The notes: generated by a model not told the origin, from the sequence alone. A stretch of 64,000 bases of DNA from Candidatus Bathyarchaeota archaeon (GCA_026014745.1 JAOZHS010000001.1:620001-684000); one strand, 5' to 3'; shown: positions 973 through 64,000, numbered from the stretch's first letter. Numbers and translations: made by a program.

Positions 973-1035
973 TTTTCAACATGTTAATGGGTGGTTTCTG
1001 CGTCAATAGTGACCTACCCCTCTATAGTTTCTGCA
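973..1035 (+). repeat. diverged 63-bp repeat, copy A (copy B at 31454-31517, inverted)
   Basis: Two blocks are shared with the reverse complement of 31454-31517: TTTTCAACAT at the left, and a right block containing TGACCTACCCCTCT followed by TTTCTGCA. The spacer between the blocks is 21 bp in both copies but differs in sequence. Equal spacing with unlike spacers suggests a two-part binding site or an old mobile repeat. It lies in the 516-bp intergenic region between the oxidoreductase and the beta-CASP nuclease, in which no gene is seen. Confidence 0.6.
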
Positions 1036-1081
1036 TAGAACCACTAATAGGATCCAAATAGGCTGCAAATAGGTTCGTTGA
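1017..1081 (+). repeat. 65-bp repeat, left copy (inverted copy at 63911-63975)
   Basis: The reverse complement of 63911-63975 matches this segment with two mismatches over 65 bp. Inside it, AATAGG occurs three times at an exact 11-bp period (1046, 1057, 1068), with a weaker ATAGAA unit one step before. GAACC and GGTTC flank the array as a short inverted repeat. Nothing in it is coding. Its near-perfect conservation about 63 kb apart points to a multicopy element or a phased protein-binding site. Confidence 0.85.
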
Positions 1082-1326
1082 CAACAAAAGAAAGAGTGAA
1101 CACAGCAGTTGAAACACCTCAAAATGCACTTTCAACTTTAGATTCAAAAAATGCACCCTACAAGCTTCAGACCCAAATTTATCGTGTTTCATGACTATAG
1201 TCCCATATTTGAGTCAATAACTTAATATTAACCCGTGAACTTTTCAGGGCGATAAACGGCGGCAATCATTGGTTTGCCAGACTCGCTGGTGCAGATCGAT
1301 TTTGCAAAATCACGTTTACAACTAAA

Positions 1327-2598
1327 TTGGAGTATCAAGAATTGAAAATTGAAGTTCTCGGAGGAGCCAGAGAAGTCGGCGGCTCCTGCATTTCTATTGA
1401 ATCCGACTCATGCAAAGTTGCGCTAGATTACGGCACCAAACTAGACGAGGAACCTAAAAAGTTACCCCGCGATTTCGACGCCGTTATCATTAGCCACGCT
1501 CATCTTGACCACACGGGCAGTCTCCTTAGTTTATGTAAAAAAAACAGCCCCACTATCGTCGGCTCAGACATAACCCGCGATGTAACCGTTGATTTACTTC
1601 ACGACATGGTTAACATCCAAACCCAAAACGGCAACACAGAATTCGACGACAGCACCGCTGAAAAAGTGCGTGATTGCTGGTGGAGTCGTGACTCCGTAGC
1701 CTTGCCCGGTATGAAGATTAATTTGCAGTCTGCGGGGCATGTGGCTGGCGCAAAAATCACAAGTCTCGAAGCCGAAAAGAAACGAGTCGTCTACACTGGC
1801 GACTTCTGTCTTCACAACACCGAAATCTTGCAGGGTTGCAAGATGGAGGCTTTACCCAAAAAACCCGACGTCTTGATTATGGAGTGCACTTATGGCGGTA
1901 AGGTTAGACCTCCTCGGGAAGAGTTGATTGATGATTTCATTCGGGAAATGCTTACCACCATGCAGCACCACGGCAACATCCTAATCCCAACTTTTGCGTT
2001 TCACCGTAGCCAAGAAATGGCTAAACGCATCGACACCGCCATCGAACGCGGCATTCTCCCCAAATATCACGTCTACACCATATCCAACATCGCCCAAAAA
2101 ATCAACGGTTACTACAACCTAAACAAAGGCTTATTCACCAAAGAAATCAAACAACAGAAAAACCCCTTCAACTACCGCCACGTCAAGCACCTTTACCGCA
2201 CCAGCCAAATTCAAGAACCCGCCATAGTTATCTGCACTTCCGGGTTTGGTCACGCAGGCGCCAGCCTAAGATTGCTTAAAGATTGGTCCGGGAGTAAAGA
2301 CAACGCCGTTATCTTAACTTCAGGGTATCTACCCCCCGACAGCCCCCTCAAACAAGCCAAGGAAGAGGGCTTCTTCAAAACCGACGAAGAAACCTACACA
2401 GTAAACGCGGCAGTACGCCAAATTGAGCTTTCAGGACACGCAGACCAAAATGAACTCGTCAAATTCGTCAATAAACTTAAACCTAAACAGACGATTCTGG
2501 TGCACGGCGACCTCGAACAGGCAGAATTACTCTCAGAGAAAATCTCGGGCATAACCGATGTCTGCATCCCCAAACAAAACGAAGTCATAGACGCCTAA
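1327..2598 (+). CDS. metallo-beta-lactamase/beta-CASP RNA nuclease
   Basis: This 423-residue protein is an RNA-processing nuclease of the beta-CASP family (archaeal RNase J/aCPSF relatives). The metal-binding HAHLDH motif is at 57-62. Further metallo-beta-lactamase elements follow (SAGHVAGA, YTGDF), and the C-terminal beta-CASP signatures LSGHAD and VHGD are present. No KH domain precedes it, so it is the short form rather than aCPSF1. The annotated start is a TTG. A second TTG at 1342 would give the compact N-terminus LKIEVLGGAREVGG usual for the family and may be the true start. It stands alone, followed by a VOC gene. Confidence 0.88.
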   Translation: MEYQELKIEVLGGAREVGGSCISIESDSCKVALDYGTKLDEEPKKLPRDFDAVIISHAHLDHTGSLLSLCKKNSPTIVGSDITRDVTVDLLHDMVNIQTQNGNTEFDDSTAEKVRDCWWSRDSVALPGMKINLQSAGHVAGAKITSLEAEKKRVVYTGDFCLHNTEILQGCKMEALPKKPDVLIMECTYGGKVRPPREELIDDFIREMLTTMQHHGNILIPTFAFHRSQEMAKRIDTAIERGILPKYHVYTISNIAQKINGYYNLNKGLFTKEIKQQKNPFNYRHVKHLYRTSQIQEPAIVICTSGFGHAGASLRLLKDWSGSKDNAVILTSGYLPPDSPLKQAKEEGFFKTDEETYTVNAAVRQIELSGHADQNELVKFVNKLKPKQTILVHGDLEQAELLSEKISGITDVCIPKQNEVIDA

Positions 2599-2680
2599 CC
2601 CAGAAATATCCATTCCTTTTATTTAGAGTAGTTAAAACTATTTTTAAGCCCAATCCTTTAGTCCTGTTTTAGGTGAAGGT

Positions 2681-3109
2681 ATGCGGCAGAAACTTACTCT
2701 GGTAACGCTTGGTGTTGCCGATTTAGATCGAGCGGTTGATTTTTACGAGAAAGGCCTGGGCTGGAAACGCTCCTCTGTGAGCACTCCGAATCTGGCGGTG
2801 TTTTCTCTTGGCGGCATTGGTCTGGCTTTGTATTCAAGGAAATCCCTCGCGGAAGACGCAACAGTTGATGAGGCTGGAAGCGGCTTTTCAGGTATCACGC
2901 TATCCTTAAACGCCGTAAACGAGGCTGAAGTTGACGCTGTCCTCTCGGAGGCGGTTAGAGCTGGCGGAATGCTGGTTAAGCCTGCGCAGAAGGTTTTCTG
3001 GGGTGGATACAGCGGCTACTTCAAGGACCCTGATGGGCACCTACTTGAGGTTGCGTATAACCCGTTTTGGAAGTTAGACGCCGAGGGCAACGTGGTGCTG
3101 GAACCCTAA
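2681..3109 (+). CDS. VOC (glyoxalase/bleomycin resistance fold) protein
   Basis: The 142-residue protein has the two beta-alpha-beta-beta-beta repeats of the vicinal oxygen chelate superfamily. The first begins LVTLGVADLDRAVDFYEKGLGW and the second ends GYFKDPDGHLLEVAYNP, where the family's C-terminal acidic metal ligand sits. Such proteins include glyoxalases, dioxygenases and resistance proteins, so the reaction is not predictable. An ATG follows a GGTGA site. It is convergent with the Mrr/TIR-like gene, with 4 bp between their ends. Confidence 0.85.
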   Translation: MRQKLTLVTLGVADLDRAVDFYEKGLGWKRSSVSTPNLAVFSLGGIGLALYSRKSLAEDATVDEAGSGFSGITLSLNAVNEAEVDAVLSEAVRAGGMLVKPAQKVFWGGYSGYFKDPDGHLLEVAYNPFWKLDAEGNVVLEP

Positions 3110-3113
3110 AAAA

Positions 3114-4274
3114 TTAGAGTTTTCTAAAGTCACCCAGTACACTATTCAGATCCATCGCCGCATTAAACGAGAGGTCATCGCTGTCATATTCTATTCTTTT
3201 CAGACCCTTCAGATTCGCCGGTAAATCTATTTTCCGCTCAACCAGCAAGATGACTTGGGTGTCATATTTGAGGTAAGCCGCGTTAATTTCTGAGAGGACA
3301 TTTGGGTTGAGGATATAGAGTCCGCTGTAGCGTCTTTCTTGCTCGACAGCGGCGATGTTAATTATGGCGCAGTCGCATTCCTTCATTATTCCAAATTTGC
3401 CTTCAGAAATTGGAACGGTTGTTTCTTCTTTGTCGCCCATGACGTAATCGTAGTGAATGAACTCTAGCATTCTCTTTACTTGGTCAGCTACCTTTGTGTT
3501 ACTGTTAGAAATGAAGACCCGCGGTTTTGCGGAGAATTCACCTTGGACTTCACTGGGTCGTTTCTCAAAGGTTAACATTGGTTCTGATTTGGGTTTGGCT
3601 ATTGGTTCTTCGGGGGTATAGACTGGTACTGCTGAAGCTTCAAACGTGGCGGGTGCGCTGGCGAGGTTTCTGATTCTTTTGGCGTAACGTTTGTTTAGCA
3701 ACTCATAGGTGGGCAGTAACTCAAGAGCGATTCCGTTGTCTAGAGCGGTTACTTTTCCTTCTAAGGTGTCGCTTTCAAACTTGAATGCTACAATGGTGCC
3801 TTTTTGGGCTTTTCCTTTGACTAAGAGTTTGACAAAGTCTTCCACTTCAGCCAAGCTTACATGGTCAGATTGAATAATCAAGAGTGGTTGGCCTCCCTCG
3901 GTGTAGCCGTTTACTCCTGAAGCGGGGTCGGCTGGTTTGCCGTTAAATTTTTTGATAACCCACTCTTCGAATTGCCGGGAAGAATACTTTTGGAGCCTTT
4001 TTTCACTCACACTCTTCTTCTTAACCACAACAACCCCAGCTACGGCGGCGACAACTGCTACAACCGCTATTATTCCGCCGATAAGCAGCCAGTTAGTCGT
4101 GCCTGTTTGCGGTGCTTCTTCGGTTGGCGTTGCCTCGTCTGGCGCTACCGTTTGACAATAAGCTGGAACAACTATGACTGAAAAAAGGAAAAATACAATA
4201 AAAACCGTTGTAAGCAATTGTTTTTTCATGATTTTCGCATCCATAGATAGGGCAAATGGTTGACTCCCGACCAT
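3114..4274 (-). CDS. membrane-anchored protein with Mrr-like and TIR-like domains
   Basis: The product (386 residues from the first ATG) has a signal-like hydrophobic segment (19-40), a short Thr/Pro/Glu-rich loop, a second membrane helix (62-84) and a KKK stop-transfer. The rest should therefore be cytoplasmic. Residues about 102-196 resemble the Mrr-type PD-(D/E)xK domain found at the end of some DNA methylases, but the GxDG aspartate is Asn (GVNG, 120-123) and the QVK element reads IIQSD, so catalysis is probably lost. Residues 251-386 match the TIR-like predicted nucleotide-binding domain (PRVFISNSN, then LSEINAAYL and a LPANLKG segment). M16, at 4229, is the more likely start. An inferred role is a membrane-bound sensor or immunity effector. 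Confidence 0.65.
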   Translation of the reverse strand: MVGSQPFALSMDAKIMKKQLLTTVFIVFFLFSVIVVPAYCQTVAPDEATPTEEAPQTGTTNWLLIGGIIAVVAVVAAVAGVVVVKKKSVSEKRLQKYSSRQFEEWVIKKFNGKPADPASGVNGYTEGGQPLLIIQSDHVSLAEVEDFVKLLVKGKAQKGTIVAFKFESDTLEGKVTALDNGIALELLPTYELLNKRYAKRIRNLASAPATFEASAVPVYTPEEPIAKPKSEPMLTFEKRPSEVQGEFSAKPRVFISNSNTKVADQVKRMLEFIHYDYVMGDKEETTVPISEGKFGIMKECDCAIINIAAVEQERRYSGLYILNPNVLSEINAAYLKYDTQVILLVERKIDLPANLKGLKRIEYDSDDLSFNAAMDLNSVLGDFRKL

Positions 4275-4507
4275 AGGTAACTGCCTATAGTGAATAGAAG
4301 GTTATTGTTCTGTCGCCTTAAAAAACTATTGAATAAATACAAACACCTACTGTCAGCAGGGGTGTATTCGCATTTTGCTATTCAACGAGTTGCACTGTAA
4401 CCACAAAGCATGAGCGCGACGGTGCTGCGGAACCCTAAGTTGTCTAAAGCCTATTTAGCAACAAAATCAATTAAAAATATGGTTTTTTGGTTTTTGAGTT
4501 GAGGTTT

Positions 4508-4828
4508 ATGTCCCAAGAATTAAAAACAAAATTGCATCTGGTGGCTGAAGCAGATAAGATCCGTGAAGAGAAAGAGTTCGCCGAAGGATTTGAACGCTAC
4601 AAATCCCTTCTAATAAGAGTAGCAAAAGTCAGACCGTTTGATATGTTGCCCCAAAGCGAGGGACCCGAATTTTACAATGTACATCAGGTGATGCATGATT
4701 TGGCTGTTCTTGAGCGAGCTAATCTTTTGGTGGGCACCTTAAAAGAAACTGGCCGAAGCGAGTACTATCAATACGACCTTTCCCCGGAAGGCGAGCAGTT
4801 GGTCCTCGAGCTCTCCAAAGAAGCCTAA
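4508..4828 (+). CDS. small winged-helix-like protein, function unknown
   Basis: An ATG at 4508 preceded by GAGGT gives 106 residues, preferable to an in-frame TTG 21 bp upstream. The N-terminal half is charged and helical. The C-terminal half (QVMHDLAVLERANLLVGTLK followed by a short YYQYDLSPEG stretch) has the helix-wing-helix pattern of archaeal winged-helix regulators. No metal or ligand motif is visible. Its neighbours, the Mrr/TIR-like gene (divergent) and the channel gene (convergent), give no functional hint. DNA binding is an inference from the fold pattern only. Confidence 0.5.
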   Translation: MSQELKTKLHLVAEADKIREEKEFAEGFERYKSLLIRVAKVRPFDMLPQSEGPEFYNVHQVMHDLAVLERANLLVGTLKETGRSEYYQYDLSPEGEQLVLELSKEA

Positions 4829-4841
4829 AAACTGCTGCATC

Positions 4842-5564
4842 TTATTCCGTGCCTGTTTTGAGTACTTCATTTTGCGGGGGGTGCTTTTCTTTATTCCCCG
4901 CGATGTCTACTAAGCGTGATATGAAAATGGCGATAAACAACGTGCCAATAACTGGCTCTAACATTACCAGCGACTGCGCCTGCAAAGTGTTAGGCGTCAT
5001 AAGCCCCCCGATGGTAGTTAACGCGTAATAGCTAAAATAGATAAAATTAGAAAAATCGCTCTTAGGCGGAATCGCTGAACTCGAAAAAGAACCCGGCGCA
5101 TATATCTCAATCAAACGGTAAACCGAAGCGAAAGCTAACCCGATTAAAAGATAAGTCGAAACCCCGCCCCAGATGAAATCCATTTCAACAGTTTTTTTGC
5201 GTGTTGTTCTGATTATATTGATGAAAATCAAAACGCCAATGAGTGAGAAAGAAATGGCTGTGAAAAACCGTACGAGTTCTTCGCTGCGCATGCTTCCTTG
5301 AATCGTAAAGAACCAAACAAACGCTAAAGTCACCAAAACTACCCGTAGGGTGATGGAGCCGATTGTTTTTTCTTGTTTCACCGAAAACCCCGCAATAACC
5401 AGCACCACTGATACAATGGCTGAAAGAAAAATCTGCCCAAAATAGCCTTGACTATAGGGGATGAAAAGCAGATAAACTATGATGAAGAACACTAAGATGA
5501 AGTATTTTGAACCATAAACTCGCTCCTTAGCGCTGCGTAAAATGGAGGGTGCTATTTGAATCAC
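4842..5564 (-). CDS. ion channel-like membrane protein (2-TM pore domain)
   Basis: The 240-residue protein has six or seven hydrophobic segments. The last two flank a pore loop reading YYALTTIGGLMTP, which occupies the place of the potassium-channel selectivity filter (usually TTVGYGD). The GG in place of GYG or GFG makes strict potassium selectivity doubtful. No C-terminal RCK/TrkA domain follows: the protein ends about 25 residues after the last helix. The family is Ion_trans_2. Transport of a cation is likely, but the ion is not predictable. Confidence 0.7.
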   Translation of the reverse strand: MIQIAPSILRSAKERVYGSKYFILVFFIIVYLLFIPYSQGYFGQIFLSAIVSVVLVIAGFSVKQEKTIGSITLRVVLVTLAFVWFFTIQGSMRSEELVRFFTAISFSLIGVLIFINIIRTTRKKTVEMDFIWGGVSTYLLIGLAFASVYRLIEIYAPGSFSSSAIPPKSDFSNFIYFSYYALTTIGGLMTPNTLQAQSLVMLEPVIGTLFIAIFISRLVDIAGNKEKHPPQNEVLKTGTE

Positions 5565-6647: not shown

Positions 6648-6705
6648 GGTGCAGGGCGGTGGGATTTGAACCCCCAACACAGTGGAGACATCGCCCGCAA
6701 AATCC
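6648..6705 (-). pseudogene. tRNA 3'-end remnant, outermost attachment-like site
   Basis: On the minus strand this reads as the T-arm and acceptor 3' strand of a tRNA, with TTCAAAT in the T loop and a CCCTGCA end, almost the same as the 3' end of tRNA-Leu at 14752. One base is inserted relative to the copies at 8645 and 14750. No matching 5' half is present upstream, so it is not a functional tRNA. Beyond the T-arm it resembles the 8645 remnant (GTGGAGA, then CCCGCA) rather than tRNA-Leu. Confidence 0.7.
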
Positions 6706-6779
6706 CTTTTTTTGGTGATGCACTACCTCCCGTAACTCGTTTCTCCGCATTTTCCAATTTTTGTTTAATCTGATAAAAG

Positions 6780-6787
6780 TTATATTA
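6780..6787 (+). promoter_or_regulatory. TATA box of the OLD-type ATPase gene
   Basis: TTATATTA lies 24-31 bp upstream of the ATG at 6811, the distance expected for an archaeal TATA box. This implies a leaderless or nearly leaderless mRNA. Confidence 0.5.
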
Positions 6788-6810
6788 ACTTAGCAATAAA
6801 CTAAGCATTC

Positions 6811-8451
6811 ATGATAGTAATCAAGGACTTAGAGATTACTAATTTCAAAAATATTAAGCACGCACATTTGAAGGGTTTGAGCCATGTCAATGTTTTCATT
6901 GGCCCAAATAATAGCGGTAAATCAAACCTTCTATTAGCGATTGAAAAGTTACGTGGGATCAGCGACAGACAAATAAACAGCCCCAATTTTGAAGAATGTG
7001 CTATTTGTCGGGAGCTGGAAAACTTAAGCAGAAAGCAATTCATCGATTATTCTTGGCAACTATCCGAAAGGGACGCTTTTGAAACAACAGTTATACCTAA
7101 ATTGTTTTTCCAATTTAGCGATGAATTTCTGGAAAGTTTTGAAGACTATAAAAAAAACGACATAGCGAAAATTGTTCAGGGCCTGATTGATAGTTATAAA
7201 GCTATGAATCGTAACTTGACAGAAAAAATGGTTGAAGAATACGTACACCACATGACGCAGTATTGTAAAAATCAGCTTGATTTTGATAATAAAACGCTAA
7301 AAAACAAGCATTCTTCTCTAATTCCAACCGCGACGATGCAGGTCATTAATCAAACTGTACTATACTGTCCTGAAGAGAGGCTGAAGAACTACAAAGGAAA
7401 AGATATTTCCGAATACATCAAGGGTAAAGACCTTGATGCTGATAAGCTTAAGGAAGTTCAAGACAGCATTAAAGAAATCGTAGACTCAGAATTGAAAACT
7501 TATACCTCGGGATCTCTGAATTATCGACGAGGACCACGAAAATTTTCAACACCCATTAATGAGCAAGGTTCAGGGGTGCGCTCCCTAATTTGTTTAGTAT
7601 TTGACATAATTTCCTCCAAAGAGCAGATAGTATTGATCGACGAGCCTGAATTAGGATTGAATCCGGCGGCAAAGAGAAAATTTATTAATTTTCTAAGAAA
7701 TGTCCCAAACAAGCAATTCTTCATAGCAACCCATGATCCAGCGTTCGTTAACCCCCGACTCTGGGATAATGGGCAACTCAGCATTTTTCTATATTCTGTT
7801 ACTAAAAATGAATTCGTGAAAGTATGTCTGGATCATAATTCTCACGATCCTAACACTTTTGCAGGCTATTTGCCCCATACTACTTGCCTCAAAGACTATC
7901 ATGTTTTCGTTGAAGGCACTTACGATGTCTATATTCATCAAATCTTTTTTAAGAAATTCATCGACGAATGCTATGATTTATTCAAGCAAAAACAAGGGTT
8001 CGCTTCCACGATTCAGCAGATTCAGAACCGAGTGGACTTTTATCATCTAGGGGGTGACTTTTGGGAACATCTTTTACATACAATCCCTCAAAAGCCTTAC
8101 ACTGCCCTTTTGATTTTTGACGGTGATAAGAAAGCGAAGGTACGCAACATTATCGACGTATTTAATCAGAATAAACTTGGAAATCTTCCAACGTTTAAAT
8201 TAGTCGAAAAAATCGATTCGGATCTTATTTCGGACAGCAATTCAATTCCAGTTTATGTTCTGGCTAAAGATAACATTGAGCAATACTTGAATCCTGTGCC
8301 CCTGCCTGAGAACAAGAGCCAAGGTCCCGATATAGCAAAAAGAATGGTTGATATCCCAGAGGAATTTGTCATGTTATATTCTAGTACTATAGGGATTATT
8401 TCACCCCAGTTTTTGTCTACGCTACAAGACCTTTGGCGTTCCAAAGTTTAA
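6811..8451 (+). CDS. OLD-family AAA ATPase with TOPRIM nuclease domain
   Basis: The 546-residue protein has an ABC/SMC-type ATPase core with Walker A GPNNSGKS at 31-38 and Walker B LIDEPELGLNP (Asp277, Glu278). A TOPRIM-like nuclease domain follows, with the glutamate motif FVEGTYDV (Glu368) and a DGD motif (Asp437, Asp439). This order is that of overcoming-lysogenization-defect (OLD) nucleases, which act in phage defence or DNA processing, sometimes with a UvrD-like partner (Gabija). No GajB-like helicase lies next to it, so it is more like a stand-alone OLD protein. It is the only gene between two tRNA remnants. Confidence 0.85.
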   Translation: MIVIKDLEITNFKNIKHAHLKGLSHVNVFIGPNNSGKSNLLLAIEKLRGISDRQINSPNFEECAICRELENLSRKQFIDYSWQLSERDAFETTVIPKLFFQFSDEFLESFEDYKKNDIAKIVQGLIDSYKAMNRNLTEKMVEEYVHHMTQYCKNQLDFDNKTLKNKHSSLIPTATMQVINQTVLYCPEERLKNYKGKDISEYIKGKDLDADKLKEVQDSIKEIVDSELKTYTSGSLNYRRGPRKFSTPINEQGSGVRSLICLVFDIISSKEQIVLIDEPELGLNPAAKRKFINFLRNVPNKQFFIATHDPAFVNPRLWDNGQLSIFLYSVTKNEFVKVCLDHNSHDPNTFAGYLPHTTCLKDYHVFVEGTYDVYIHQIFFKKFIDECYDLFKQKQGFASTIQQIQNRVDFYHLGGDFWEHLLHTIPQKPYTALLIFDGDKKAKVRNIIDVFNQNKLGNLPTFKLVEKIDSDLISDSNSIPVYVLAKDNIEQYLNPVPLPENKSQGPDIAKRMVDIPEEFVMLYSSTIGIISPQFLSTLQDLWRSKV

Positions 8452-8644
8452 GAATTGATTGTTTTAGGAAAACCAATGTTGCTTGTGTATTTAGTCCGCA
8501 CTAATTGCTGGGCTTTTTCGCATGATCGGGAGAAGAATAAGGGAAATACCAAACGGGCAGAGTTTGAGGGCGCTAAAATCTTTAGGAAACACAAGCTTTA
8601 GCAGAAACATCGCCAGCGGGACCCCCTTACTTTTTGTATTTAAA

Positions 8645-8702
8645 GGTGCAGGGGGTGGGATTTGAACTCTATCACCCGTGGAGAAATCACCCGCACATCT
8701 TC
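8645..8702 (-). pseudogene. tRNA 3'-end remnant, left attachment site (attL) of the 6.1-kb element
   Basis: Bases 8645-8667 are identical to 14750-14772, the 3' end of the intact tRNA-Leu(CAG), over 23 bp and in direct orientation. The identity covers the acceptor 3' strand and most of the T-arm. Outside this core the segment resembles the remnant at 6648. It is the expected leftover of integration into a tRNA 3' end. It lies 84 bp before the Rep gene. Confidence 0.8.
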
Positions 8703-8750
8703 CCTTTTTTCTTGCTATTGCACATTAGGGCTTTCTACTATGCCTAAACT

Positions 8751-9905
8751 TTGTCATCTCCTGAACTTTTTCCGAATGGACTCAAACCGTACACTGGAAG
8801 GCTTCCAAGTCGAATAGACCCTGATAGTGTTTTAACCTCTCAAGATGACAAGCTCTATCACAAAGTCAAGCTGCACGGGGTCTACAAAGACGAAACTGGC
8901 TGGCACATCAAAGAGGGCGAACCAAAAACAGAATACATCGATTATGGTGATAAATGGACTGGGCTAACCAAGTACGGCAAAAAGGGCTACAGCAAGAAAA
9001 ACAAGGCGCATTACTCAAGAGTCAGGAGCGGTCTTCTTGTCGGAGAGACTAATCAGGAAAGAATAGATTTTCTCACGCTAAGCACTCAATACAATAAGGA
9101 TAGACCTCAAGATAGACTCAAAAGAATTCCCGAGCTAAACTATGCGTTCACCAAGTTAAAGCAAAAAATAGAGTATTATTGGCAAAAGATGCGCTATGAA
9201 AAATTCTGTAAGAAAAACCACTTAGAACCCTATGAAGTGCATTCTCGCAAGAAAAGCGTTAAGTACCCTGAATATTGGGCTATGTTTCGCTCCAAATTCA
9301 AATACATCAAGGTAAAAACCGCCGAAGGAGGAGGCGTACTACACATTATTTTCCGCAAACCCAAAGATTACCCGCCAATTCCCAAAAACTGGCTACATAA
9401 GCAATGGTATACGATATGGGGTTCATGGAATACTTCAATTGAGGAAGTACCTTATTCGGATGTTGACCGAATGAGTCACTATGTAGTAGGCAAATATTTC
9501 GTAAAGCAACCGATTATACGCTTAAGTTATGGGCAGGAATGGGTATTCTGTGGTTTTGTTAAAAGCTTCAAAAGAATAATTGAGTGCTACGCTAACATGA
9601 AGCAATCTCCAGATACGCCTGAGAAGCATAAGCCCTTCAAGAGGGCTATTGAAGTCTGGAATAAGACAATAATGACTAATTGTTTACCAAAAAACACGCG
9701 TCAACGGTCTATCTTTGGAGCTATTGGAATGGATAGCAAATGGCACTCAAAAGGTTATGTAAAACCAGCCATTCAAAATATAGGGGTAGTTGGGTGTGAC
9801 TTCGATGTATGGCGAGAAAAAATTCATTTGAAATGGTGGGATTGTAGGATTGACTCGCCACGATATTTGGACAACAGGTATATTGTTGTTTGGCTAAACA
9901 AGTAG
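8751..9905 (+). CDS. HUH-type rolling-circle replication initiator (archaeal Rep)
   Basis: The 384-residue protein has the three ordered motifs of HUH endonucleases: motif 1 FLTLS at 107-111, motif 2 GVLHIIF around His198 (only one of the usual two histidines is clear), and motif 3 HYVVGKY with candidate catalytic Tyr244 and Lys248. The segment after motif 3 (QEWVFCGFVKSFK) resembles that of Rep proteins on archaeal small plasmids. Such proteins nick the origin and start rolling-circle replication. The TTG start at 8751 has no strong ribosome site, and the nearby ATG is out of frame. It is the first gene of the tRNA-Leu element. Confidence 0.7.
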   Translation: MSSPELFPNGLKPYTGRLPSRIDPDSVLTSQDDKLYHKVKLHGVYKDETGWHIKEGEPKTEYIDYGDKWTGLTKYGKKGYSKKNKAHYSRVRSGLLVGETNQERIDFLTLSTQYNKDRPQDRLKRIPELNYAFTKLKQKIEYYWQKMRYEKFCKKNHLEPYEVHSRKKSVKYPEYWAMFRSKFKYIKVKTAEGGGVLHIIFRKPKDYPPIPKNWLHKQWYTIWGSWNTSIEEVPYSDVDRMSHYVVGKYFVKQPIIRLSYGQEWVFCGFVKSFKRIIECYANMKQSPDTPEKHKPFKRAIEVWNKTIMTNCLPKNTRQRSIFGAIGMDSKWHSKGYVKPAIQNIGVVGCDFDVWREKIHLKWWDCRIDSPRYLDNRYIVVWLNK

Positions 9906-10007
9906 TTGAATCCGTTTGCACGCTACTATTTAGCGATATTTCCTGCCTAAAAGGTTGTTTCATTAGTTGGTGGCTAACTAACTTATTGCCGTACAAGCGG
10001 TTTAGAA

Positions 10008-10508
10008 TCAATTGGGGGATTTTTTACCTCGCTCGGAACAGAAGTCGTCTATTTGGATTAGAGCCTTAGATGCTGCACTTTCAATATCAGCAGTTGCCTC
10101 CTTAACACGCTCAATATCAATCCCTGAACCATCGTTTGATCGCGCATTTACATATTCAGTCCATATTGTTACTTTCGAGTTAAAACTGAGATAGGCTATT
10201 TGCAACTGCACAAGACTATTTACACTGTTTTGAGCTTTTTGCATAGGTCTATAAAGCAAAACAGCGGTGATAGAACTCAATCCACCTGCTGTTGAAATTA
10301 TACCTAAAGAAGTATTACCAACATGAAAAAATTCGACAATCGCTAGAATAATTAAACCGCCGCCAATTAGAAATGATGCCAGAGTCATCGAAAGTATAAC
10401 ACTCTGAGTGAGTCTCGCTCTACTAGCAGATTCATTTTGCATCTTAATTATTTCCTTTTGTAGTTGAGCGATTGGATGTAAAATTTTTGCATCATCATCA
10501 TTTTCCAT
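10008..10508 (-). CDS. two-TM membrane protein of the mobile element
   Basis: The 166-residue product has an N-terminal coiled region, two membrane helices (about 49-70 and 77-97) separated by a short loop, and a helical C-terminal tail. The pattern, a helical hairpin in the membrane followed by a conserved amphipathic R..KAQ..V..L helix, resembles the TRADD-N-associated membrane domain found in prokaryotic conflict systems. That assignment is tentative. It is transcribed away from the GTG-start gene at 10610, with a shared 100-bp promoter region. A role in element maintenance or defence is inferred from location only. Confidence 0.5.
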   Translation of the reverse strand: MENDDDAKILHPIAQLQKEIIKMQNESASRARLTQSVILSMTLASFLIGGGLIILAIVEFFHVGNTSLGIISTAGGLSSITAVLLYRPMQKAQNSVNSLVQLQIAYLSFNSKVTIWTEYVNARSNDGSGIDIERVKEATADIESAASKALIQIDDFCSERGKKSPN

Positions 10509-10567
10509 GAGTCAATACCACGGTTCGGATGTTAGTTTTTGTGCTAACTTCGTATGGGTGTAGGCAA

Positions 10568-10579
10568 TATATAAATAGA
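10568..10579 (+). promoter_or_regulatory. TATA box of the 10610-12399 operon
   Basis: ATATATAAATAG sits about 31-42 bp upstream of the GTG at 10610, in the divergent intergenic region with the gene at 10008-10508. It is one of the clearest archaeal TATA boxes in the window. Confidence 0.6.
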
Positions 10580-10609
10580 TTTTATAGCCTAATATCCTAA
10601 AACTGGCGT

Positions 10610-11101
10610 GTGCTTTTGGGCGACACATCACTTGTCCAAGAAATCGGTGAACAAATTTCACCTCTCGAAGCTAAAGGAAGAGCTTTACCATACGTGGAGC
10701 TCAGAAGCAACGCTAAAACGCTGTATGCTTGTGTGAAAAGGCTCAGAACACTTATTGCTGATGAGCGGTTCTATATTTTAATAGCTAACGAGTTCGAACA
10801 AGCTTACGAGGACATCTACTGTTCTGAAATGGCAAAATATCACTCGGATAACAAAGCGTCATGTCCTTTTGAACTTAAGGATTATGGTTTCTTTAATGAT
10901 GAACTGTCGACTATAGAAAAGGAACTCGAACAAATTCAGGAACCTGTTCGTTTGCTTAAGAAACATGAAACTGAAATTGTGGCTAAAATAGATGTTAGTC
11001 TTGTCAGGATCATGAAGAGCGCCCGCAGTATTATTACAAGAACTGATCAGAGAATTGAGACTATGACAACTATTGGAATAAGAAGAAGGGGCGGAGAATA
11101 A
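10610..11101 (+). CDS. unknown helical protein of the mobile element
   Basis: The 163-residue protein starts at a GTG. It is predominantly charged and helical, with long heptad-like runs (ELSTIEKELEQIQEPVRLLKK) that suggest a coiled coil. There is no membrane segment or signal peptide, and no recognisable catalytic motif. It lies 2 bp upstream of the TPR gene, so the two form an operon from the TATA box near 10570, and a protein-protein partnership is likely. I do not recognise the family. Confidence 0.55.
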   Translation: MLLGDTSLVQEIGEQISPLEAKGRALPYVELRSNAKTLYACVKRLRTLIADERFYILIANEFEQAYEDIYCSEMAKYHSDNKASCPFELKDYGFFNDELSTIEKELEQIQEPVRLLKKHETEIVAKIDVSLVRIMKSARSIITRTDQRIETMTTIGIRRRGGE

Positions 11102-11103
11102 AC

Positions 11104-12399
11104 ATGATAAAAAGTGACAAAATTAATACGTATTCTCCTATAAATGACGAGTCAAAGCTTGATGAGATTCGATTAAAATTAAACGGGGAACCCGCCAATC
11201 CAGCGCAGCTTTTAGTTAATCTAGTTGAGGTATCTTTACGATTATATGCGTTCTATTGTAGCAGAGACACCAAACAAGCCACGAATTTTTCATATTTTAT
11301 TGAAAACACAATAAAAGAATTTCAGTCAAACAGTAGAATTAACCGATCTGATAGAGAATTTATCAAGGCTCTACTTAAATATTGGAATAGTAAGGTTGCC
11401 GAATGCAGTCCAGAAATTGCTGAAAGGGCCCATCAAGACACAATTTCAGAGTTGGTTAAAAAATCTAAATTTGATGAAGCACTCGATAAATTACAGGAAT
11501 ATTATAAAGAGAGTAAAGAACGGGGTAACGACGAAGAGGCAATAAAATTACTTGGTGACATCGGTCGAATTTATAGAAGAAAAGGCGAGTCAGAAGATGC
11601 GTTATATTATTTCGAGTTAGCCTCCAAAAATGATCCCAGTTACTTGTTTGACGTTGCATATACACTGTCAGAGATGTCAAAATTTAATGAGTCTATTGAA
11701 GCATACCAGTCATTTTTGAAGATAGCACCTAAGAATAAATTCGCTTGGAACAATATCGGTTGGTCTTATTTAGGTGTAAAAGATAACATTAGAGCGCTTC
11801 AGTCTTTTGAAAGAGCACTTACGCTTGATAATGAAATTCAGCCGCTAATAGGGAAAGCAACGGTATATGGGATCATGAAGAAATACAATCAAGCGATTAA
11901 AATTCTTCAAGAAGTACTTAAGAAAAAGCCCCGAAACAAAAGTGCTTTGATCAATTTAACGCATATTTATAACGATTGTCTTCATGATAGCGAGAAAGCG
12001 TTGTATTACGCTAAGTTAGCTTTAAAAGTACATCCAAACCACTTTTATTCAAGACCAAATTTAGCCGAAATTCTTGTTACAGTTGGACAGTATGATGAGG
12101 CTATTAAAGAAGCAGAAGCAACTCTCCCGAACAAAGGTCACATTGAAATAAACATGTCGATGTACTTTGCTATTGCAGTAGCGTATTTCCTCAAAGGTCA
12201 AAAAATAGAAGGAGAACTATATTTGGGAGTAGTAAATGACATATACAATTCTCTTCCATCAGATTTCAAAAATGCTTGGTCCTATTCTGGAATTAGATAT
12301 TTTCTAAATAATTGTTCGTTAGATCAGTCAATAAAGGATAAGCTGTTTAAGATGCTCGACAGAATTGAAGCTATTCCAATGACGGAATCTGCATTCTAA
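11104..12399 (+). CDS. TPR-repeat protein of the mobile element
   Basis: The 431-residue protein carries about six tetratricopeptide repeats between roughly 120 and 350. Typical units include AIKLLGDIGRIYRRKGESEDAL, SIEAYQSFLKIAPKNKFAW and NNIGWSYLGVKDNIRALQSF. The N-terminal 110 residues are helical without recognisable repeats. TPR domains are scaffolds for protein binding and no enzyme domain is attached. The ATG lies 2 bp after the preceding stop, so it is translated from the same mRNA. Codon use is AT-rich, like the other genes of the element and unlike the host genes downstream of the tRNA. Confidence 0.8.
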   Translation: MIKSDKINTYSPINDESKLDEIRLKLNGEPANPAQLLVNLVEVSLRLYAFYCSRDTKQATNFSYFIENTIKEFQSNSRINRSDREFIKALLKYWNSKVAECSPEIAERAHQDTISELVKKSKFDEALDKLQEYYKESKERGNDEEAIKLLGDIGRIYRRKGESEDALYYFELASKNDPSYLFDVAYTLSEMSKFNESIEAYQSFLKIAPKNKFAWNNIGWSYLGVKDNIRALQSFERALTLDNEIQPLIGKATVYGIMKKYNQAIKILQEVLKKKPRNKSALINLTHIYNDCLHDSEKALYYAKLALKVHPNHFYSRPNLAEILVTVGQYDEAIKEAEATLPNKGHIEINMSMYFAIAVAYFLKGQKIEGELYLGVVNDIYNSLPSDFKNAWSYSGIRYFLNNCSLDQSIKDKLFKMLDRIEAIPMTESAF

Positions 12400-12439
12400 G
12401 CTCTAACAGTTTTCATCAAAAATAAAAGATGTCATAAAT

Positions 12440-12523
12440 ACACGAGTGTCAACCGCAAGCTAAAAATGAGGGGGGTTACCCGCTGACGGGGGGTGAACTC
12501 ATTTTTAGCGAGGATTGACGTGT
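12440..12523. repeat. long inverted repeat with G-rich loop, hairpin 1
   Basis: A perfect 12-bp inverted repeat, GCTAAAAATGAG at 12459-12470 and its complement at 12498-12509, encloses a 27-base G-rich loop. It extends outward as an imperfect stem (ACACGAGTGTCAA and GATTGACGTGT). It lies in a 346-bp gene-free stretch between the TPR gene and the regulator. A rolling-circle origin or a structured RNA are the main options. Confidence 0.75.
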
Positions 12524-12565
12524 AATACAACTTACAAACACAGCAAGCATTCATAATAGGGGCTG

Positions 12566-12598
12566 GCTAAAATTGGGTCTGGGGGTTCCAATTTTAGC
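12566..12598. repeat. inverted repeat, hairpin 2, related to hairpin 1
   Basis: GCTAAAATTGG (12566-12576) pairs perfectly with 12588-12598 around an 11-base G-rich loop. The stem begins with the same GCTAAAA as hairpin 1, so the two appear to be related units. A T-run (CTTTTT) follows at 12601-12606, so one role could be terminator. Confidence 0.7.
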
Positions 12599-12642
12599 GG
12601 CTTTTTGGTTCTTTTGTGCAAACATAAAGAACATCATTTTTG

Positions 12643-12668
12643 CTAAGCTTTTTTCAAAAAAGCGTTAG
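12643..12668. terminator. hairpin 3, A/T-rich, possible bidirectional terminator
   Basis: CTAA and TTAG flank GCTTTTTT and AAAAAAGC, forming a nearly perfect 12-bp stem with a minimal loop. It lies between convergent genes (TPR gene on plus, winged-helix gene on minus) and would place a T-run in RNA of either strand. Confidence 0.5.
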
Positions 12669-12690
12669 AACAGTTAGCGTTGTCGGCGCA

Positions 12691-12707
12691 GGCGAGCGAA
12701 GCTCGCC
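12691..12707. repeat. hairpin 4, GC-rich 7-bp stem with GAA loop
   Basis: GGCGAGC (12691-12697) pairs with GCTCGCC (12701-12707) across a GAA triloop. This is a compact GC-rich hairpin in an otherwise AT-rich element. It is the last of four consecutive inverted repeats before the winged-helix gene. Confidence 0.6.
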
Positions 12708-12745
12708 GAGCACTGTACTTGTTAAAATTATAAACGAACTTCAGA

Positions 12746-13468
12746 TTATGTTCTGCGACGCGAAGGGTCTTCTAAACCGTTTTTTGGAACTACCTTATTG
12801 TATTTCTCATTAAACTCTTCATACATTTTCTCAATTTTGCTAAACAACTTCTCCTTATAGCGAGGACAATCTCTACAACGCGTAACAATAGATTTCTCAT
12901 GCATCCGATACATCGGGTTCCCAATCACCTTCCAAAAAGCCTTATCATCACCAAACCGTTTCTTGCCCAAGTCATAAGTTACAATTTCCATCAACTCAAG
13001 AAGGCTCGAAATAACAAGATACTCAGCCTCTTCATTGACCCTTTTATCAAGTTGCTCATCTGATAGTTGCTCAAAGAACTCTCGCCTCTGACGAGCAGTA
13101 AGTCTATGTTCCCTAAGGCGTTTAGGGAAATGTTTCTGGTTTTTATAATCCAAATCTAATTGCTTTTTGACTTCCTCAACCGTAGCAGGTCGCACCAGCT
13201 CATAAATATCCTTAACCAAAGTGTACTCAGAAAATTGAAACCCCTTTTTACACTCAACTAACCCTGAATCAACCAAATGTTTTAAATGAATATCCAAATT
13301 TGGTCTTGACATCTTAATATCAAGAAATTTGAGCGCATCCAACAACATATCATGACGAAGGGCTCCCTTAATCCGTAATGCAAAAAAGATGTTCTTACAA
13401 CCAGAATCAAGATTTTCATGCTTTTCTAAGAGTGCGTCATCTTTTTCGTCCTTTGAGGTCACAAACAA
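12746..13468 (-). CDS. winged-helix DNA-binding protein of the mobile element
   Basis: The 240-residue protein has an N-terminal winged-helix domain (about 25-85) with recognition-helix-like text SRPNLDIHLKHLVDSGLVE, typical of ArsR/MarR-like archaeal regulators. A helical middle rich in Arg/Glu follows, and then a C-terminal CRDCPRYKEKL motif that could bind metal or a cluster together with other residues. It is transcribed away from the recombinase gene and toward the hairpin cluster. A role in controlling copy number or excision of the element is inferred from its position. Confidence 0.65.
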   Translation of the reverse strand: MFVTSKDEKDDALLEKHENLDSGCKNIFFALRIKGALRHDMLLDALKFLDIKMSRPNLDIHLKHLVDSGLVECKKGFQFSEYTLVKDIYELVRPATVEEVKKQLDLDYKNQKHFPKRLREHRLTARQRREFFEQLSDEQLDKRVNEEAEYLVISSLLELMEIVTYDLGKKRFGDDKAFWKVIGNPMYRMHEKSIVTRCRDCPRYKEKLFSKIEKMYEEFNEKYNKVVPKNGLEDPSRRRT

Positions 13469-13543
13469 ACCTGCCTGCGCAAATTTACCCTGATATTTTC
13501 CTTGCCCGTTAATATGCTAATCTCCCAATTTTGAATCGGTGAA

Positions 13544-13774
13544 ATTTACACGCTAATCAACGAAGACAAAGGAGGTGAAAAGGCAAGTAGAGAATGTCCT
13601 AATTGTAATAGTAAAAGAAACTGGAAAGATGGAACGCGGGAAACAAACTTAGGCTTAACCCAAAGATACCAATGTAAAACATGTGGTTTTCGCTTCAGCG
13701 ACTCTAAAAACTTAAATCTAGAAATTGCCCATAAGAGTATCAGCCAATTATGCGCTGAATTAGAGGCGAAAAAA
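13544..13774 (+). other. in-frame zinc-ribbon extension of the recombinase, no standard start codon
   Basis: The frame of the recombinase is open from 13535, just after a TGA at 13532-13534. It encodes a zinc ribbon: CPNC at 13595-13606, then CKTC at 13673-13684, within a sequence of the type QRYQCKTCGFRFSD. Such a ribbon is common at the N-terminus of archaeal integrases. No ATG, GTG or TTG lies in frame before it. An ATT at 13544 stands 5 bp after GGTG, and a GGAGGTG at 13571 precedes the cysteines. A rare start, a frameshift or a sequence error are all possible. Confidence 0.6.
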
Positions 13775-14710
13775 TTGGAAACTGCAACAGAAACAAAAAC
13801 TGTTGCGGGTGAATCAACTACACATACAAATAAAATCTTAGAGTACGCTTGGTGGCTAAAGAAGAACGGAAGAAGCGAATCAACTATCAATCCAAGAGTT
13901 AAACTGCTAAACCTGATGGTTAAACGAGGAGTTAACCTCTATGACCCCGAGACAGTCAAAGAAGTCATAGCTAAACAAACTTGGAGCAATGGCAGAAAAA
14001 ACAATGCTATAGATGCCTACTCATCTTTTCTTAAAATGATAGGCGGCAAATGGGAAGCACCAATTTACAAAAAAATACGAAAGCTACCGTTTATCCCTAA
14101 GGAAACCGAAATAGACCAACTGATTGCTGGATGCAGCAAAAAACTCGCCACATTCCTTCAGATGCTAAAAGAAACAGGTGCACGACGTGGCGAAATCTGG
14201 TCACTCAAATGGACAGACATAGACTTCGAAAGCAAGATTGTCAACATAACTCCTGAAAAGGGAAGTAACCCAAGAGTCGCACACCTAAGCAACAAATTAT
14301 TAGAAATGCTCAGCAACCTAAAGAAAATCTACGGAGACAGAGTATTCTCAACAGCAGACATGAATATTGAATACTTCGCTATAAACCTGCAAAGACAACG
14401 AAAAAAGCTCTCTAATAAGATAGGAAATCCACGTCTGTTAAGAATTCACTTCCACACATTCCGCTATTGGAAAGGCACAATGCTATACCACCAGACTAAA
14501 GATATGTACTATGTAATGCAACGACTCGGACATAGGAACATACAAAACACTCTGCTATATGTGCAACTTGAAGAAGCGCTATTTCAAGGCGAATGCGAAT
14601 ACATCTCAAAGGTCGCAAAGACGGAGGCTGACATTTGCTCTCTGATAGAAGCTGGATTTGAGTATGTTACAGACTTCCAAGGCTCAAAGATTTTCAAGAA
14701 AAGAAAGTAG
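13775..14710 (+). CDS. tyrosine recombinase/integrase (XerA-like)
   Basis: Counted from the TTG at 13775 the protein has 311 residues. An N-terminal SAM-like core-binding domain (to about 105) is followed by the catalytic domain, with Arg137 in TGARRGE, His227 and Arg230 in HFHTFRYW, His253 in RLGHRN, and the nucleophile Tyr262 in LLYVQ. These are the residues of active tyrosine recombinases. The reading frame very likely continues upstream into a zinc ribbon (separate entry), so the true protein may be about 388 residues. It reads toward tRNA-Leu, 41 bp away, the usual position for an integrase that inserts DNA at a tRNA 3' end. Confidence 0.88.
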   Translation: METATETKTVAGESTTHTNKILEYAWWLKKNGRSESTINPRVKLLNLMVKRGVNLYDPETVKEVIAKQTWSNGRKNNAIDAYSSFLKMIGGKWEAPIYKKIRKLPFIPKETEIDQLIAGCSKKLATFLQMLKETGARRGEIWSLKWTDIDFESKIVNITPEKGSNPRVAHLSNKLLEMLSNLKKIYGDRVFSTADMNIEYFAINLQRQRKKLSNKIGNPRLLRIHFHTFRYWKGTMLYHQTKDMYYVMQRLGHRNIQNTLLYVQLEEALFQGECEYISKVAKTEADICSLIEAGFEYVTDFQGSKIFKKRK

Positions 14711-14751
14711 CGCCTCACCCTTTACACCCTAGGCTATTTTGCTTATATTGG

Positions 14752-14836
14752 TGCAGGGGGTGGGATTTGAACCCACGAACCTCTACAGGATAGGCTCCTG
14801 AAGCCTACGCCTTTGACCATGCTCGGCGACCCCTGC
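14752..14836 (-). tRNA. tRNA-Leu(CAG)
   Basis: The minus strand folds as a class II tRNA: acceptor GCAGGGG paired with CCCCTGC and discriminator A, a D-arm starting GCCGAGC, an anticodon stem TAGGC/GCCTA with loop TTCAGGA (anticodon CAG), a variable arm, and a T-arm GTGGG-TTCAAAT-CCCAC. CCA is encoded at 14749-14751. Its 3' half is the right attachment site of the 6.1-kb element, and the gene remains complete after insertion. Confidence 0.93.
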
Positions 14837-39115: not shown

Positions 39116-40405
<1,290 letters not shown>

Positions 40406-40658: not shown

Positions 40659-41945
40659 ATGGCTGTCAACTTCGCGGACATAGCATGGCTTCTAATGTCA
40701 ACTGCCCTAGTTATGCTAATGACGCCGGCGCTTGCTTTCTTCTACGGCGGCTTAGTCCGAAGAAAAAACCTCGTCTCCACTCTCGTACAATGCATCATCA
40801 TCTTTGCTGTAGTCAGCTTGGTATGGTTCTTCTGGGGATACAGCCTCGTGTTTGGCCCCAGCGTCGGCGGAGTCATCGGAAACCTCTCCCTCGTTGGCTT
40901 ACACGGCATAACCATAAACACCACCAGCCCCTACGCACCCAACATCCCCGAAATCCTCTTCTTTGCCTTCCAACTCAAATTCGCCGCAATCACTCCCGCC
41001 CTCATCATTGGCGCCTGCGCCGAACGCATCCGATTCAAATCACTCCTCATCTTTGTGCTTCTTTGGTCCACTCTCATCTACTGCCCAATTGCCCACTGGA
41101 TGTGGAACAGCGACGGCTGGCTTCACCTATTGGGCGCCTATGACTTTGCAGGCGGTATCGTAGTCCACATCGCTGCGGGTCTCTCAGCTTTGGCAGCCGC
41201 TCTCATTGTGGGGCGACGCAAAGGTTGCGTGTATTGGAAAGACCAACTAAAAGTTCTCAACCAACAAGCCCCTAATGCACCTCCCATGGGTACAGAATTC
41301 AAACCCACAAACATCCCATATGTTATCTTAGGCGCTGGACTTTTGTGGTTTGGCTGGTTTGGTTTCAACGGTGGAAGTGCATTAGCTGCAGATGCGATTG
41401 CGGTTTCAGCTGTGGTTTCTACTAATTTGGCGGCGGCTGCAGCGGCAGTTAGCTGGATGCTTCTTGACTGGGTAATCAAAGGCAAACCCTCCGCGATTGG
41501 CATCTCAGTGGGCGCTGTTTGTGGTATGGCCGCGGTTACTGCCGCAGCAGGCTACATAGATTTCACCTCCGCGGTAATCATCGGCTTAGCTGCAGGCATA
41601 ATTTCAAATCTTATAGCTAACTGGCGTGCTGGACGCTCCAGAATCGACGATACCCTCGACGTGTTTGCCTGTCATGGTGTTGGCGGCATTATCGGCGCGG
41701 TCGCGGTTGGGCTATTTGCGACGGCAGCGGTAAACCCCGTTGTACAAGGGCTATTCTTTGGTAACCCTGCGCAGCTTGCGATTCAGGCGTTAGCGGTTGT
41801 GGTTGTGGCAGCCTTTTCTTTCGTTGGCTCTTATCTACTGTTGCGGTTGGTGGATGTGTTTACGCCTGTCCGCGTAAGTCCCAAAGAAGAAGACGAAGGC
41901 CTAGATCTAAGTCAACACGGCGAAGAAGCCTACCAGCTTGGCTAA
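40659..41945 (+). CDS. amt: ammonium transporter Amt (third of three)
   Basis: The ATG at 40659 follows GGGAAAGAG and gives an N-terminus that aligns with the second copy; an earlier TTG-type frame start at 40614 would add 15 residues. The 428-residue protein repeats the Amt motifs (FFYGGLVRRKNLVST, GACAERIRFKSLLI, VVHIAAGLSALAAALIVGRRKG, GWFGFNGGSA, DDTLDVFACHGVGGIIGAV). The C-terminal tail EEDEGLDLSQHGEEAYQL is nearly the same as in the second copy, and such tails are where GlnK docks in other systems. A TATA-like TTTAAATATT lies about 55 bp upstream. Confidence 0.95.
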   Translation: MAVNFADIAWLLMSTALVMLMTPALAFFYGGLVRRKNLVSTLVQCIIIFAVVSLVWFFWGYSLVFGPSVGGVIGNLSLVGLHGITINTTSPYAPNIPEILFFAFQLKFAAITPALIIGACAERIRFKSLLIFVLLWSTLIYCPIAHWMWNSDGWLHLLGAYDFAGGIVVHIAAGLSALAAALIVGRRKGCVYWKDQLKVLNQQAPNAPPMGTEFKPTNIPYVILGAGLLWFGWFGFNGGSALAADAIAVSAVVSTNLAAAAAAVSWMLLDWVIKGKPSAIGISVGAVCGMAAVTAAAGYIDFTSAVIIGLAAGIISNLIANWRAGRSRIDDTLDVFACHGVGGIIGAVAVGLFATAAVNPVVQGLFFGNPAQLAIQALAVVVVAAFSFVGSYLLLRLVDVFTPVRVSPKEEDEGLDLSQHGEEAYQLG

Positions 41946-63659: not shown

Positions 63660-64000
63660 CGTTTTCTCACATTTTTTCTATTTTTTCCTTTTTTGAATAT
63701 GATTTGTTGTGTTTTTTTGTTTTGTGGGGTTTGTTTTTTTGGTTGGGGGGTGGGTTTGGGTGGTTGTTTGGGTTGTTTTTTAATTGGTTTTTTGTTTGGT
63801 GGAATTGCTTATAGGGTTGGTGGGGGTTTGGGTTTTTGACGGGCGAAAAACGCTTTATGGGCCATGCTAGTGCCCGCTTGCATTGCGCTGTTCACTGCTT
63901 TCCGATGCTTTCAGCGAACCTATTTGTAGCCTATTTGGATCCTATTAGTGGTTCTATGCAGAAACTATAGAGGGGGAGGGGGCACCGCCTCATATTTGGA
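63660..64000. other. G/T-rich intergenic end of the window
   Basis: A T-rich stretch at 63664-63700 probably ends the Argonaute operon. From about 63710 to 63840 one strand is almost purely G and T (runs such as GGTTGGGGGGTGGG and GGTTGTTTGGGTTG), a striking strand bias. The inverted 65-bp repeat follows at 63911-63975. No gene is seen. Confidence 0.5.
63911..63975 (-). repeat. 65-bp repeat, right copy (inverted relative to 1017-1081)
   Basis: This is the reverse complement of 1017-1081, with two mismatches. The three AATAGG units at 11-bp spacing and the GAACC/GGTTC flanks are kept. Sequence similarity stops on both sides. It lies 251 bp downstream of the Argonaute gene. Confidence 0.85.

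What the first reader, a model, noticed from the sequence alone, without database searches (positions are those of the whole stretch)
8645..14772. A 6.1-kb integrated plasmid-like element at tRNA-Leu with exact 23-bp attachment repeats
The repeat at 8645-8667 equals 14750-14772 exactly, inside the 3' end of tRNA-Leu(CAG). The segment between carries an HUH-type Rep, a recombinase with a complete active site next to the tRNA, a regulator and a hairpin cluster. The predicted excised circle is 6,105 bp. This appears to be a self-contained replicon with few recognisable relatives among its cargo genes.
Basis: partly seen in the sequence, partly recalled or inferred. Interest (0 to 1): 0.75.

Follow-up and report, generated by a model that had tools for sequence, protein, structure and literature searches.

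The report
Integrated mini-plasmid in a Bathyarchaeia chromosome
A 6.1-kb mobile DNA element with its own integrase and a probable rolling-circle replication gene sits in a tRNA gene of an uncultured Bathyarchaeia archaeon; it belongs to a previously uncharacterised, widespread family that also leaves behind small integrase-less cassettes carrying defence or toxin-antitoxin genes.

Summary
An exact 23-bp repeat (8645-8667 = 14750-14772) bounds a 6,105-bp, low-GC (38.6% against 45%) segment at the 3' end of tRNA-Leu(CAG). Congeneric genomes have a single-copy, integrase-free tRNA-Leu(CAG) site.

It is one member of a Bathyarchaeia family. A 5,429-bp sister sits in tRNA-Phe of the same genome. 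It shares the integrase, the regulator (91% aa) and the 80-bp left arm, but has a different Rep. Three more rep+int elements (5.5-6.4 kb) with flanking repeats occur in related genomes.

A left-end motif (GANATCNCCCGCAN4-6CCCTT) has 45 hits in the family against 0 for the control; the own genome's 3 hits are all at element ends.

The Rep is a divergent HUH-type protein related to the rolling-circle Rep of Thermotoga pRQ7. Its HUH motif reads VLH: the first histidine is missing in all 14 aligned family Reps, including two inovirus-like ones.

Circularisation would place int directly upstream of rep (145 and 148 nt), as in virus SNJ2, so replication is plausibly switched on by excision.

Four similar cassettes were found elsewhere.

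Excision, replication and mobility are inferred, not shown.

The parts
8645..8667 (+). attL, exact 23-bp copy of the tRNA-Leu(CAG) 3' end
14750..14772 (+). attR, inside the 3' end of tRNA-Leu(CAG)
14749..14836 (-). tRNA-Leu(CAG), integration target, intact
8679..8758 (+). Left arm: motif TGGNGANATCNCCCGCA(N4-6)CCCTTTTTT (core at 8683); 85% identical to the sister element's arm, homology ending just after the Rep start codon
8751..9905 (+). Rep: divergent HUH-type rolling-circle initiator (motif 1 FLTLSTQ, motif 2 EGGGVLHIIF, Tyr motif SHYVVGKYF); TTG start at the position homologous to the sister's Rep start
10008..10508 (-). Cargo: 166-aa protein, weak match to 2-TM domains associated with conflict systems
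10610..11101 (+). Cargo: 163-aa protein with no relative in 257 Bathyarchaeia genomes
11104..12399 (+). Cargo: 431-aa TPR-repeat protein
12459..12598 (+). Two strong hairpins (12459-12509 and 12566-12598) with related stems; candidate origin
12746..13468 (-). Winged-helix (ArsR-like) regulator, 91% aa identical to the sister element's, divergent from int
13535..14710 (+). Zn-ribbon tyrosine integrase with complete catalytic set; first standard start codon only at 13775
6648..6673 (+). Older att-like copy (imperfect) at the left end of the tandem cassette
6687..6708 (+). Left-arm motif of the tandem cassette
6811..8451 (+). Cassette cargo: 546-aa OLD/AriA/AbiL-like AAA ATPase, candidate defence gene
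8560..8601 (+). Remnant of an integrase C terminus (EFEGAKIFRKHKL*); 88% DNA identity to the int 3' end of a related genome
8602..8644 (+). Right-arm remnant of the cassette; with att, 83% identical to the int-tRNA spacer of the tRNA-Leu(CAG) element in G024

Best explanation
The segment is an integrative mini-plasmid. Its Zn-ribbon tyrosine integrase recombines the 23-bp core at the tRNA-Leu(CAG) 3' end, which keeps the tRNA intact, and excises a 6,105-bp circle (inferred). In the circle the int gene lies 145 nt upstream of the rep gene in the same direction, so transcription from the int side can drive rep only after excision (inferred by analogy with SNJ2). Rep, a one-histidine variant of the HUH family related to the rolling-circle Rep of pRQ7, would nick an origin, possibly at the hairpin pair, and replicate the circle by rolling circle. 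The regulator, divergent from int, probably represses int/excision. The genes between rep and the regulator are exchangeable cargo. Integrase-less cassettes with the same two ends, such as 6649-8644, would be deletion derivatives that related integrases can move in trans (inferred). Shown: anatomy, family, site occupancy in relatives, Rep homology and fold. Inferred: activity of every step.
For: Exact att repeat in a tRNA 3' end, low GC of element and cassette. Congeneric tRNA-Leu(CAG) sites with one att copy and no integrase of this family, e.g. G031 and G029, with the window's left-side neighbour (CPSF-like gene) close by. Sister element in tRNA-Phe, 5,429 bp, same core genes, different Rep. 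Three further rep+int elements of 5.5-6.4 kb with flanking repeats and the same rep -> int orientation. End motif: 45 hits against 0 in the control; in the own genome only at three element ends. Rep: pRQ7 Rep by tblastn (E=9e-3), catalytic motifs aligned; model of residues 78-306 (pLDDT 83) gives 34 viral hits at E<1e-3, those named being microvirus replication initiators, and SIRV1 ORF119 in the PDB (prob 0.87). Int-rep joining with an excision-dependent replicon is shown for SNJ2 (PMC13107129). Int-tail cassettes.
Against: No circular junction or free circle was available. The first His of HUH is missing, so catalysis is uncertain. The integrase frame lacks a standard start codon before 13775. 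PDB fold hits are weak (no E<=1e-3), profile comparison with the sister's HUH Rep is weak (probability 21%), and pRQ7 similarity alone is marginal. The hairpins are not conserved in sister elements. No test was made for a separate rep promoter.
Confidence: 0.72

Rival explanations
1. A dead or domesticated remnant: once mobile, now immobile, because the integrase lost its start codon and the Rep lost a catalytic histidine.
For: No ATG/GTG/TTG before 13775 in the int frame; VLH instead of HUH in Rep.
Against: att repeats are still exact; all large ORFs are open; the missing His is shared by the whole Rep family across genera and by two inovirus-like bacterial Reps, so it is not local decay; the Zn-ribbon coding region upstream of 13775 is still open and conserved with the sister.
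Confidence: 0.17
2. A small provirus (inovirus- or pleolipovirus-like) rather than a plasmid, with unrecognised virion genes among the cargo.
For: Two bacterial contigs, one with inovirus-like gene content, share the one-His Rep; a 2-TM cargo protein is present; coat proteins can be unrecognisable.
Against: No structural or morphogenesis match in PHROGs; no Zot-like ATPase among the ORFs; cargo differs completely between sister elements.
Confidence: 0.08
3. Replication by another route or none: the Rep-like protein acts in mobilisation or regulation and the element is simply an integrating island.
For: One catalytic His missing; none of six short Rep- or int-bearing contigs tested is circular.
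Against: Motif 1, the single His, Tyr and fold are retained in all 14 aligned Reps; the alternative Rep in the sister element has a full HUH motif and a Pfam Rep match at the same position, so this slot holds replication initiators.
Confidence: 0.15

Closest known systems
SNJ2 provirus (betapleolipovirus, haloarchaea; PMC13107129)
   Same: Tyrosine integrase; circularisation places the integrase gene in a co-directional unit with the replication gene; replication follows excision.
   Different: SNJ2 Rep belongs to Rep-Arvir (related to Rep_trans); the Rep here is HUH-related; no virion genes found; Bathyarchaeia host.
Thermotoga mini-plasmids pRQ7/pRKU1 (846 bp, rolling circle; PMC3398313)
   Same: Homologous Rep core with motif 1, HUH region and Tyr motif.
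   Different: pRQ7 Rep has both histidines (HMH) and is a bare one-gene plasmid; here one His, long insertions, integrase, regulator and cargo.
Cryptic integrated elements of Thaumarchaeota (PMC6563490)
   Same: Archaeal elements integrated at tRNA 3' ends by tyrosine integrases, with short att repeats.
   Different: The shared left-arm motif, Rep swapping at the start codon and int-tail cassettes are specific to what is described here, as far as the searched text shows.
cis-mobilizable elements / ssrA islands of Dehalococcoides (PMC3146451)
   Same: Tandem att-flanked modules, some without an integration module, next to modules with one.
   Different: Serine recombinase at ssrA there; here a tyrosine integrase whose C-terminal codons remain in each cassette.

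Membership tests
tRNA-targeting integrative element (tyrosine integrase) | Direct repeat of the tRNA 3' end at both boundaries | tested here: met
   23 bp exact
tRNA-targeting integrative element (tyrosine integrase) | Catalytic R, K, HxxR, H, Y | tested here: met
tRNA-targeting integrative element (tyrosine integrase) | Unoccupied site in relatives | tested here: met
   no integrase of this family at most congeneric tRNA-Leu(CAG) loci read; G031 and G029 share the neighbour gene
tRNA-targeting integrative element (tyrosine integrase) | Excised circle | not testable with these tools
   no reads
SSV1-type (suicidal) archaeal integrase | att inside the int gene so that integration splits it; R...KxxR...Y | tested here: not met
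   int intact, HxxR; definition from PMC8371274
pNOB8-type archaeal integrase | R...YxxR...Y | tested here: not met
   HTFR/HTLR
HUH endonuclease Rep | His-U-His metal motif | tested here: not met
   VLH; only the second His invariant in 14 sequences
HUH endonuclease Rep | Catalytic tyrosine after motif 2 | tested here: met
   Y244 and Y249 invariant in 14 Reps; pRQ7 Rep also has Tyr in this region
HUH endonuclease Rep | HUH fold | tested here: met
   domain model pLDDT 83; microvirus initiators at E<1e-3; SIRV1 ORF119 prob 0.87; PDB E-values weak
HUH endonuclease Rep | Nicking/rolling-circle activity | not testable with these tools
   -
Inovirus/pleolipovirus provirus | Virion or morphogenesis genes | tested here: not met
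   no PHROG structural hit
cis-mobilizable element (for 6649-8644) | att sites both sides, no integrase, next to an integrase-bearing element | tested here: met
cis-mobilizable element (for 6649-8644) | Moves with help of another element | not testable with these tools
Rep-Arvir (SNJ2) | Sequence/structure membership | not tested
   no Rep-Arvir sequence was compared

The most novel reading that the evidence does not exclude
Bathyarchaeia host a cassette economy at tRNA genes. A Zn-ribbon integrase family with a diagnostic left-arm signature moves autonomous mini-replicons and also, in trans, 1.3-2.5-kb integrase-less cassettes that keep the arm and an integrase C-terminal tail and carry single defence, toxin-antitoxin or metabolic genes. 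The autonomous members replicate only after excision, using a functional one-histidine branch of the HUH family.
Probability: 0.3. Interest if true: 0.7.

Novelty: new variant of a known kind. Interest (0 to 1): 0.52.

Why it matters
Bathyarchaeia are abundant and uncultured, and the literature search found viruses but no mini-plasmid family for them. The family gives a sequence handle (end motif, integrase, two interchangeable Reps) to find elements in metagenomes, and small replicons that could become genetic tools. It poses two testable questions: can a Rep with one of the two HUH histidines nick DNA, and is excision-coupled replication, known from one haloarchaeal virus, a general archaeal strategy? 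The cassettes suggest a route by which defence and toxin-antitoxin genes accumulate at archaeal tRNA genes.

Tried and rejected
Viral-contig scan with the regulator: no relatives. Phage collection with Rep: none. PDB sequence profiles for both Reps: nothing meaningful. Full-length Rep model: pLDDT 65, uninformative fold hits, so the catalytic domain was modelled. Rep1 and the sister's Rep2 are not alignable by BLASTP and only weakly by profile. SET-domain neighbour as a synteny marker failed: found only in our own genome. Circular contigs: none of six short contigs has a terminal overlap. Hairpin conservation across elements: rejected. tRNA T-loop test upstream of all motif hits: only 8 of 33 match a strict pattern (chance 1.7%), so many motif sites are not in tRNA genes or the pattern is too strict. 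The idea that the segment is ordinary chromosome was rejected.

Full report
OBSERVATION. The 23-bp repeat is exact and unique in the window; one copy is the 3' end of tRNA-Leu(CAG), and the copies lie 6,105 bp apart. Chance expectation is about 1e-6 pairs. The element has 38.6% GC against 45-46% for its surroundings. The window is C1:620001-684000 of a 2.7-Mb, three-contig genome. The genome is Bathyarchaeia: its family relative G060 carries the contigs that match Candidatus Bathyarchaeota archaeon DYS_1 (identity inferred from equal contig lengths and Rep positions).

EMPTY SITES. Twelve congeneric tRNA-Leu(CAG) loci were read, some on short contigs. Most show no integrase of this family at that tRNA. 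In G031 and G029 the CPSF-like gene that lies 12 kb away in our genome sits 1.2 and 2.4 kb from the tRNA. G024 has a related integrase at the same tRNA, and G021 a different integrase followed by an OLD-TOPRIM gene.

SISTER ELEMENT. C3 of the same genome holds a 5,429-bp element at tRNA-Phe(GAA) with a 21-bp repeat. The regulator is 91% identical in protein, the integrase 54%, and the left arm 85% in DNA. Its Rep has a standard HUH motif (YPHIHC) and a Pfam Rep match, but is not alignable with the window Rep. The arm homology (window 8679-8758) runs to just past the TTG start codon of both Reps, so the Reps look as if swapped at the start codon (sequence; inference).

FAMILY. Integrases of this family occur in 155 of 257 Bathyarchaeia genomes. 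Where the tRNA was found next to the integrase, the int 3' end usually faces the tRNA 3' end: Leu, Phe, Pro or Cys. Three more rep+int elements have flanking repeats: G060:C17 6,070 bp, G062 6,354 bp, G140 5,467 bp; in all, rep and int point the same way with rep at the left end. A tRNA-Pro element of 7,891 bp has a 42-bp repeat but no match to either Rep. The motif GANATCNCCCGCAN4-6CCCTT gives 45 hits in 28 of 91 family genomes and none for the reversed control. The own genome has exactly three hits: windows 6687 and 8683, and the C3 element end.

REP. The window Rep has relatives in 9 further Bathyarchaeia genomes of 257 searched and in two bacterial contigs, at least one with inovirus-like gene content. 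Fourteen sequences share TL of motif 1, EGxGVxH and two tyrosines; the first HUH histidine is absent in all. tblastn finds the Rep of Thermotoga plasmids pRKU1 and pRQ7 at E=9e-3; pRQ7 Rep reads HMH at the aligned position, matches Pfam REP_ORF2-G2P at 2e-15, and pRQ7 replicates by rolling circle (PMC3398313). The domain model (residues 78-306, pLDDT 83) matches viral proteins at E<1e-3, those named being microvirus replication initiators; PDB matches are weak, the most plausible being SIRV1 ORF119 (prob 0.87). I read it as an HUH-related Rep with a VUH motif.

HOW IT MAY WORK. Int stop to attR is 39 nt and attL to Rep start is 106 nt, so excision puts rep 145 nt behind int; for the sister I computed 148 nt. 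In SNJ2 the same joining creates the replication operon, transcribed from within int (PMC13107129). The regulator is divergent from int and the intergenic DNA is part of the 93% identical block, which suggests that it controls int. These steps are inferred. The hairpin pair is an origin candidate only.

INTEGRASE-LESS CASSETTES. Left of attL lies an att-like copy plus arm motif (6648-6712), an OLD/AriA/AbiL-like AAA ATPase (6811-8451), and then EFEGAKIFRKHKL*, the C terminus of this integrase family (88% DNA identity to the G004 int 3' end), plus a spacer that with att is 83% identical to the G024 right arm. It is thus a 1,996-bp element that lost all but the int tail. Similar modules: own genome C2 at tRNA-Leu(TAG), about 1.27 kb with an XRE regulator and DUF2178 protein; G061, 1,467 bp with a VapBC-like PIN/MazE-like pair; G067, 2,503 bp; G085, creatininase with a longer int remnant, repeat not found. 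They may be movable by related integrases, as proposed for cis-mobilizable islands (PMC3146451), or may simply be decaying elements; the data do not decide.

CARGO. The 163-aa protein has no relative in 257 genomes, and the 166-aa 2-TM protein one weak relative. The latter's weak match to conflict-associated 2-TM domains, next to a TPR protein, permits a defence role but is not evidence for one.

VERDICT. A real integrated mini-plasmid-like element, a member of an uncharacterised Bathyarchaeia family; mechanism partly by analogy. Novelty: a new variant of a known kind. No paper found in the searched library describes this family; that library is incomplete.

Noticed in passing
window 13535-13775: The integrase frame is open and conserved upstream of 13775 but has no ATG/GTG/TTG; a strong SD-like AGGAGGTGA lies inside the frame and GGAGGTGA is conserved in the sister. 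Start mechanism unexplained.
   Followed up: partly
L010 (G000:C2:672000-680000), 1214-5228: tRNA-Leu(TAG) carries a further int-tail cassette (1214-2485) and a 2.7-kb segment bounded by a 42-bp repeat holding an Hrq1/MrfA-type helicase.
   Followed up: partly
L142 (G021:C97): At the same tRNA-Leu(CAG) another integrase type and an OLD-family AAA-TOPRIM gene are found, suggesting that this tRNA is a recurrent site for such genes.
   Followed up: partly
L028 2607-3347 and L029 4486-5370: Two bacterial contigs (one in a Nitrospira MAG, one IMG/VR with a Zot-like gene) carry Reps with the same one-histidine motif GNGVLH.
   Followed up: partly
window 8740: Both sister elements share an ATG with the same first codons (ATG CCT AAN CTT TGN CAT) just before the Rep start but in another frame; possible leader peptide.
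   Followed up: no
window 1013-1102 and 63889-63979: A 91-bp inverted pair, 90% identical, at opposite ends of the window.
   Followed up: no
window 39128-40398 and 40677-41938: Tandem 1.3-kb duplication at 67% identity.
   Followed up: no
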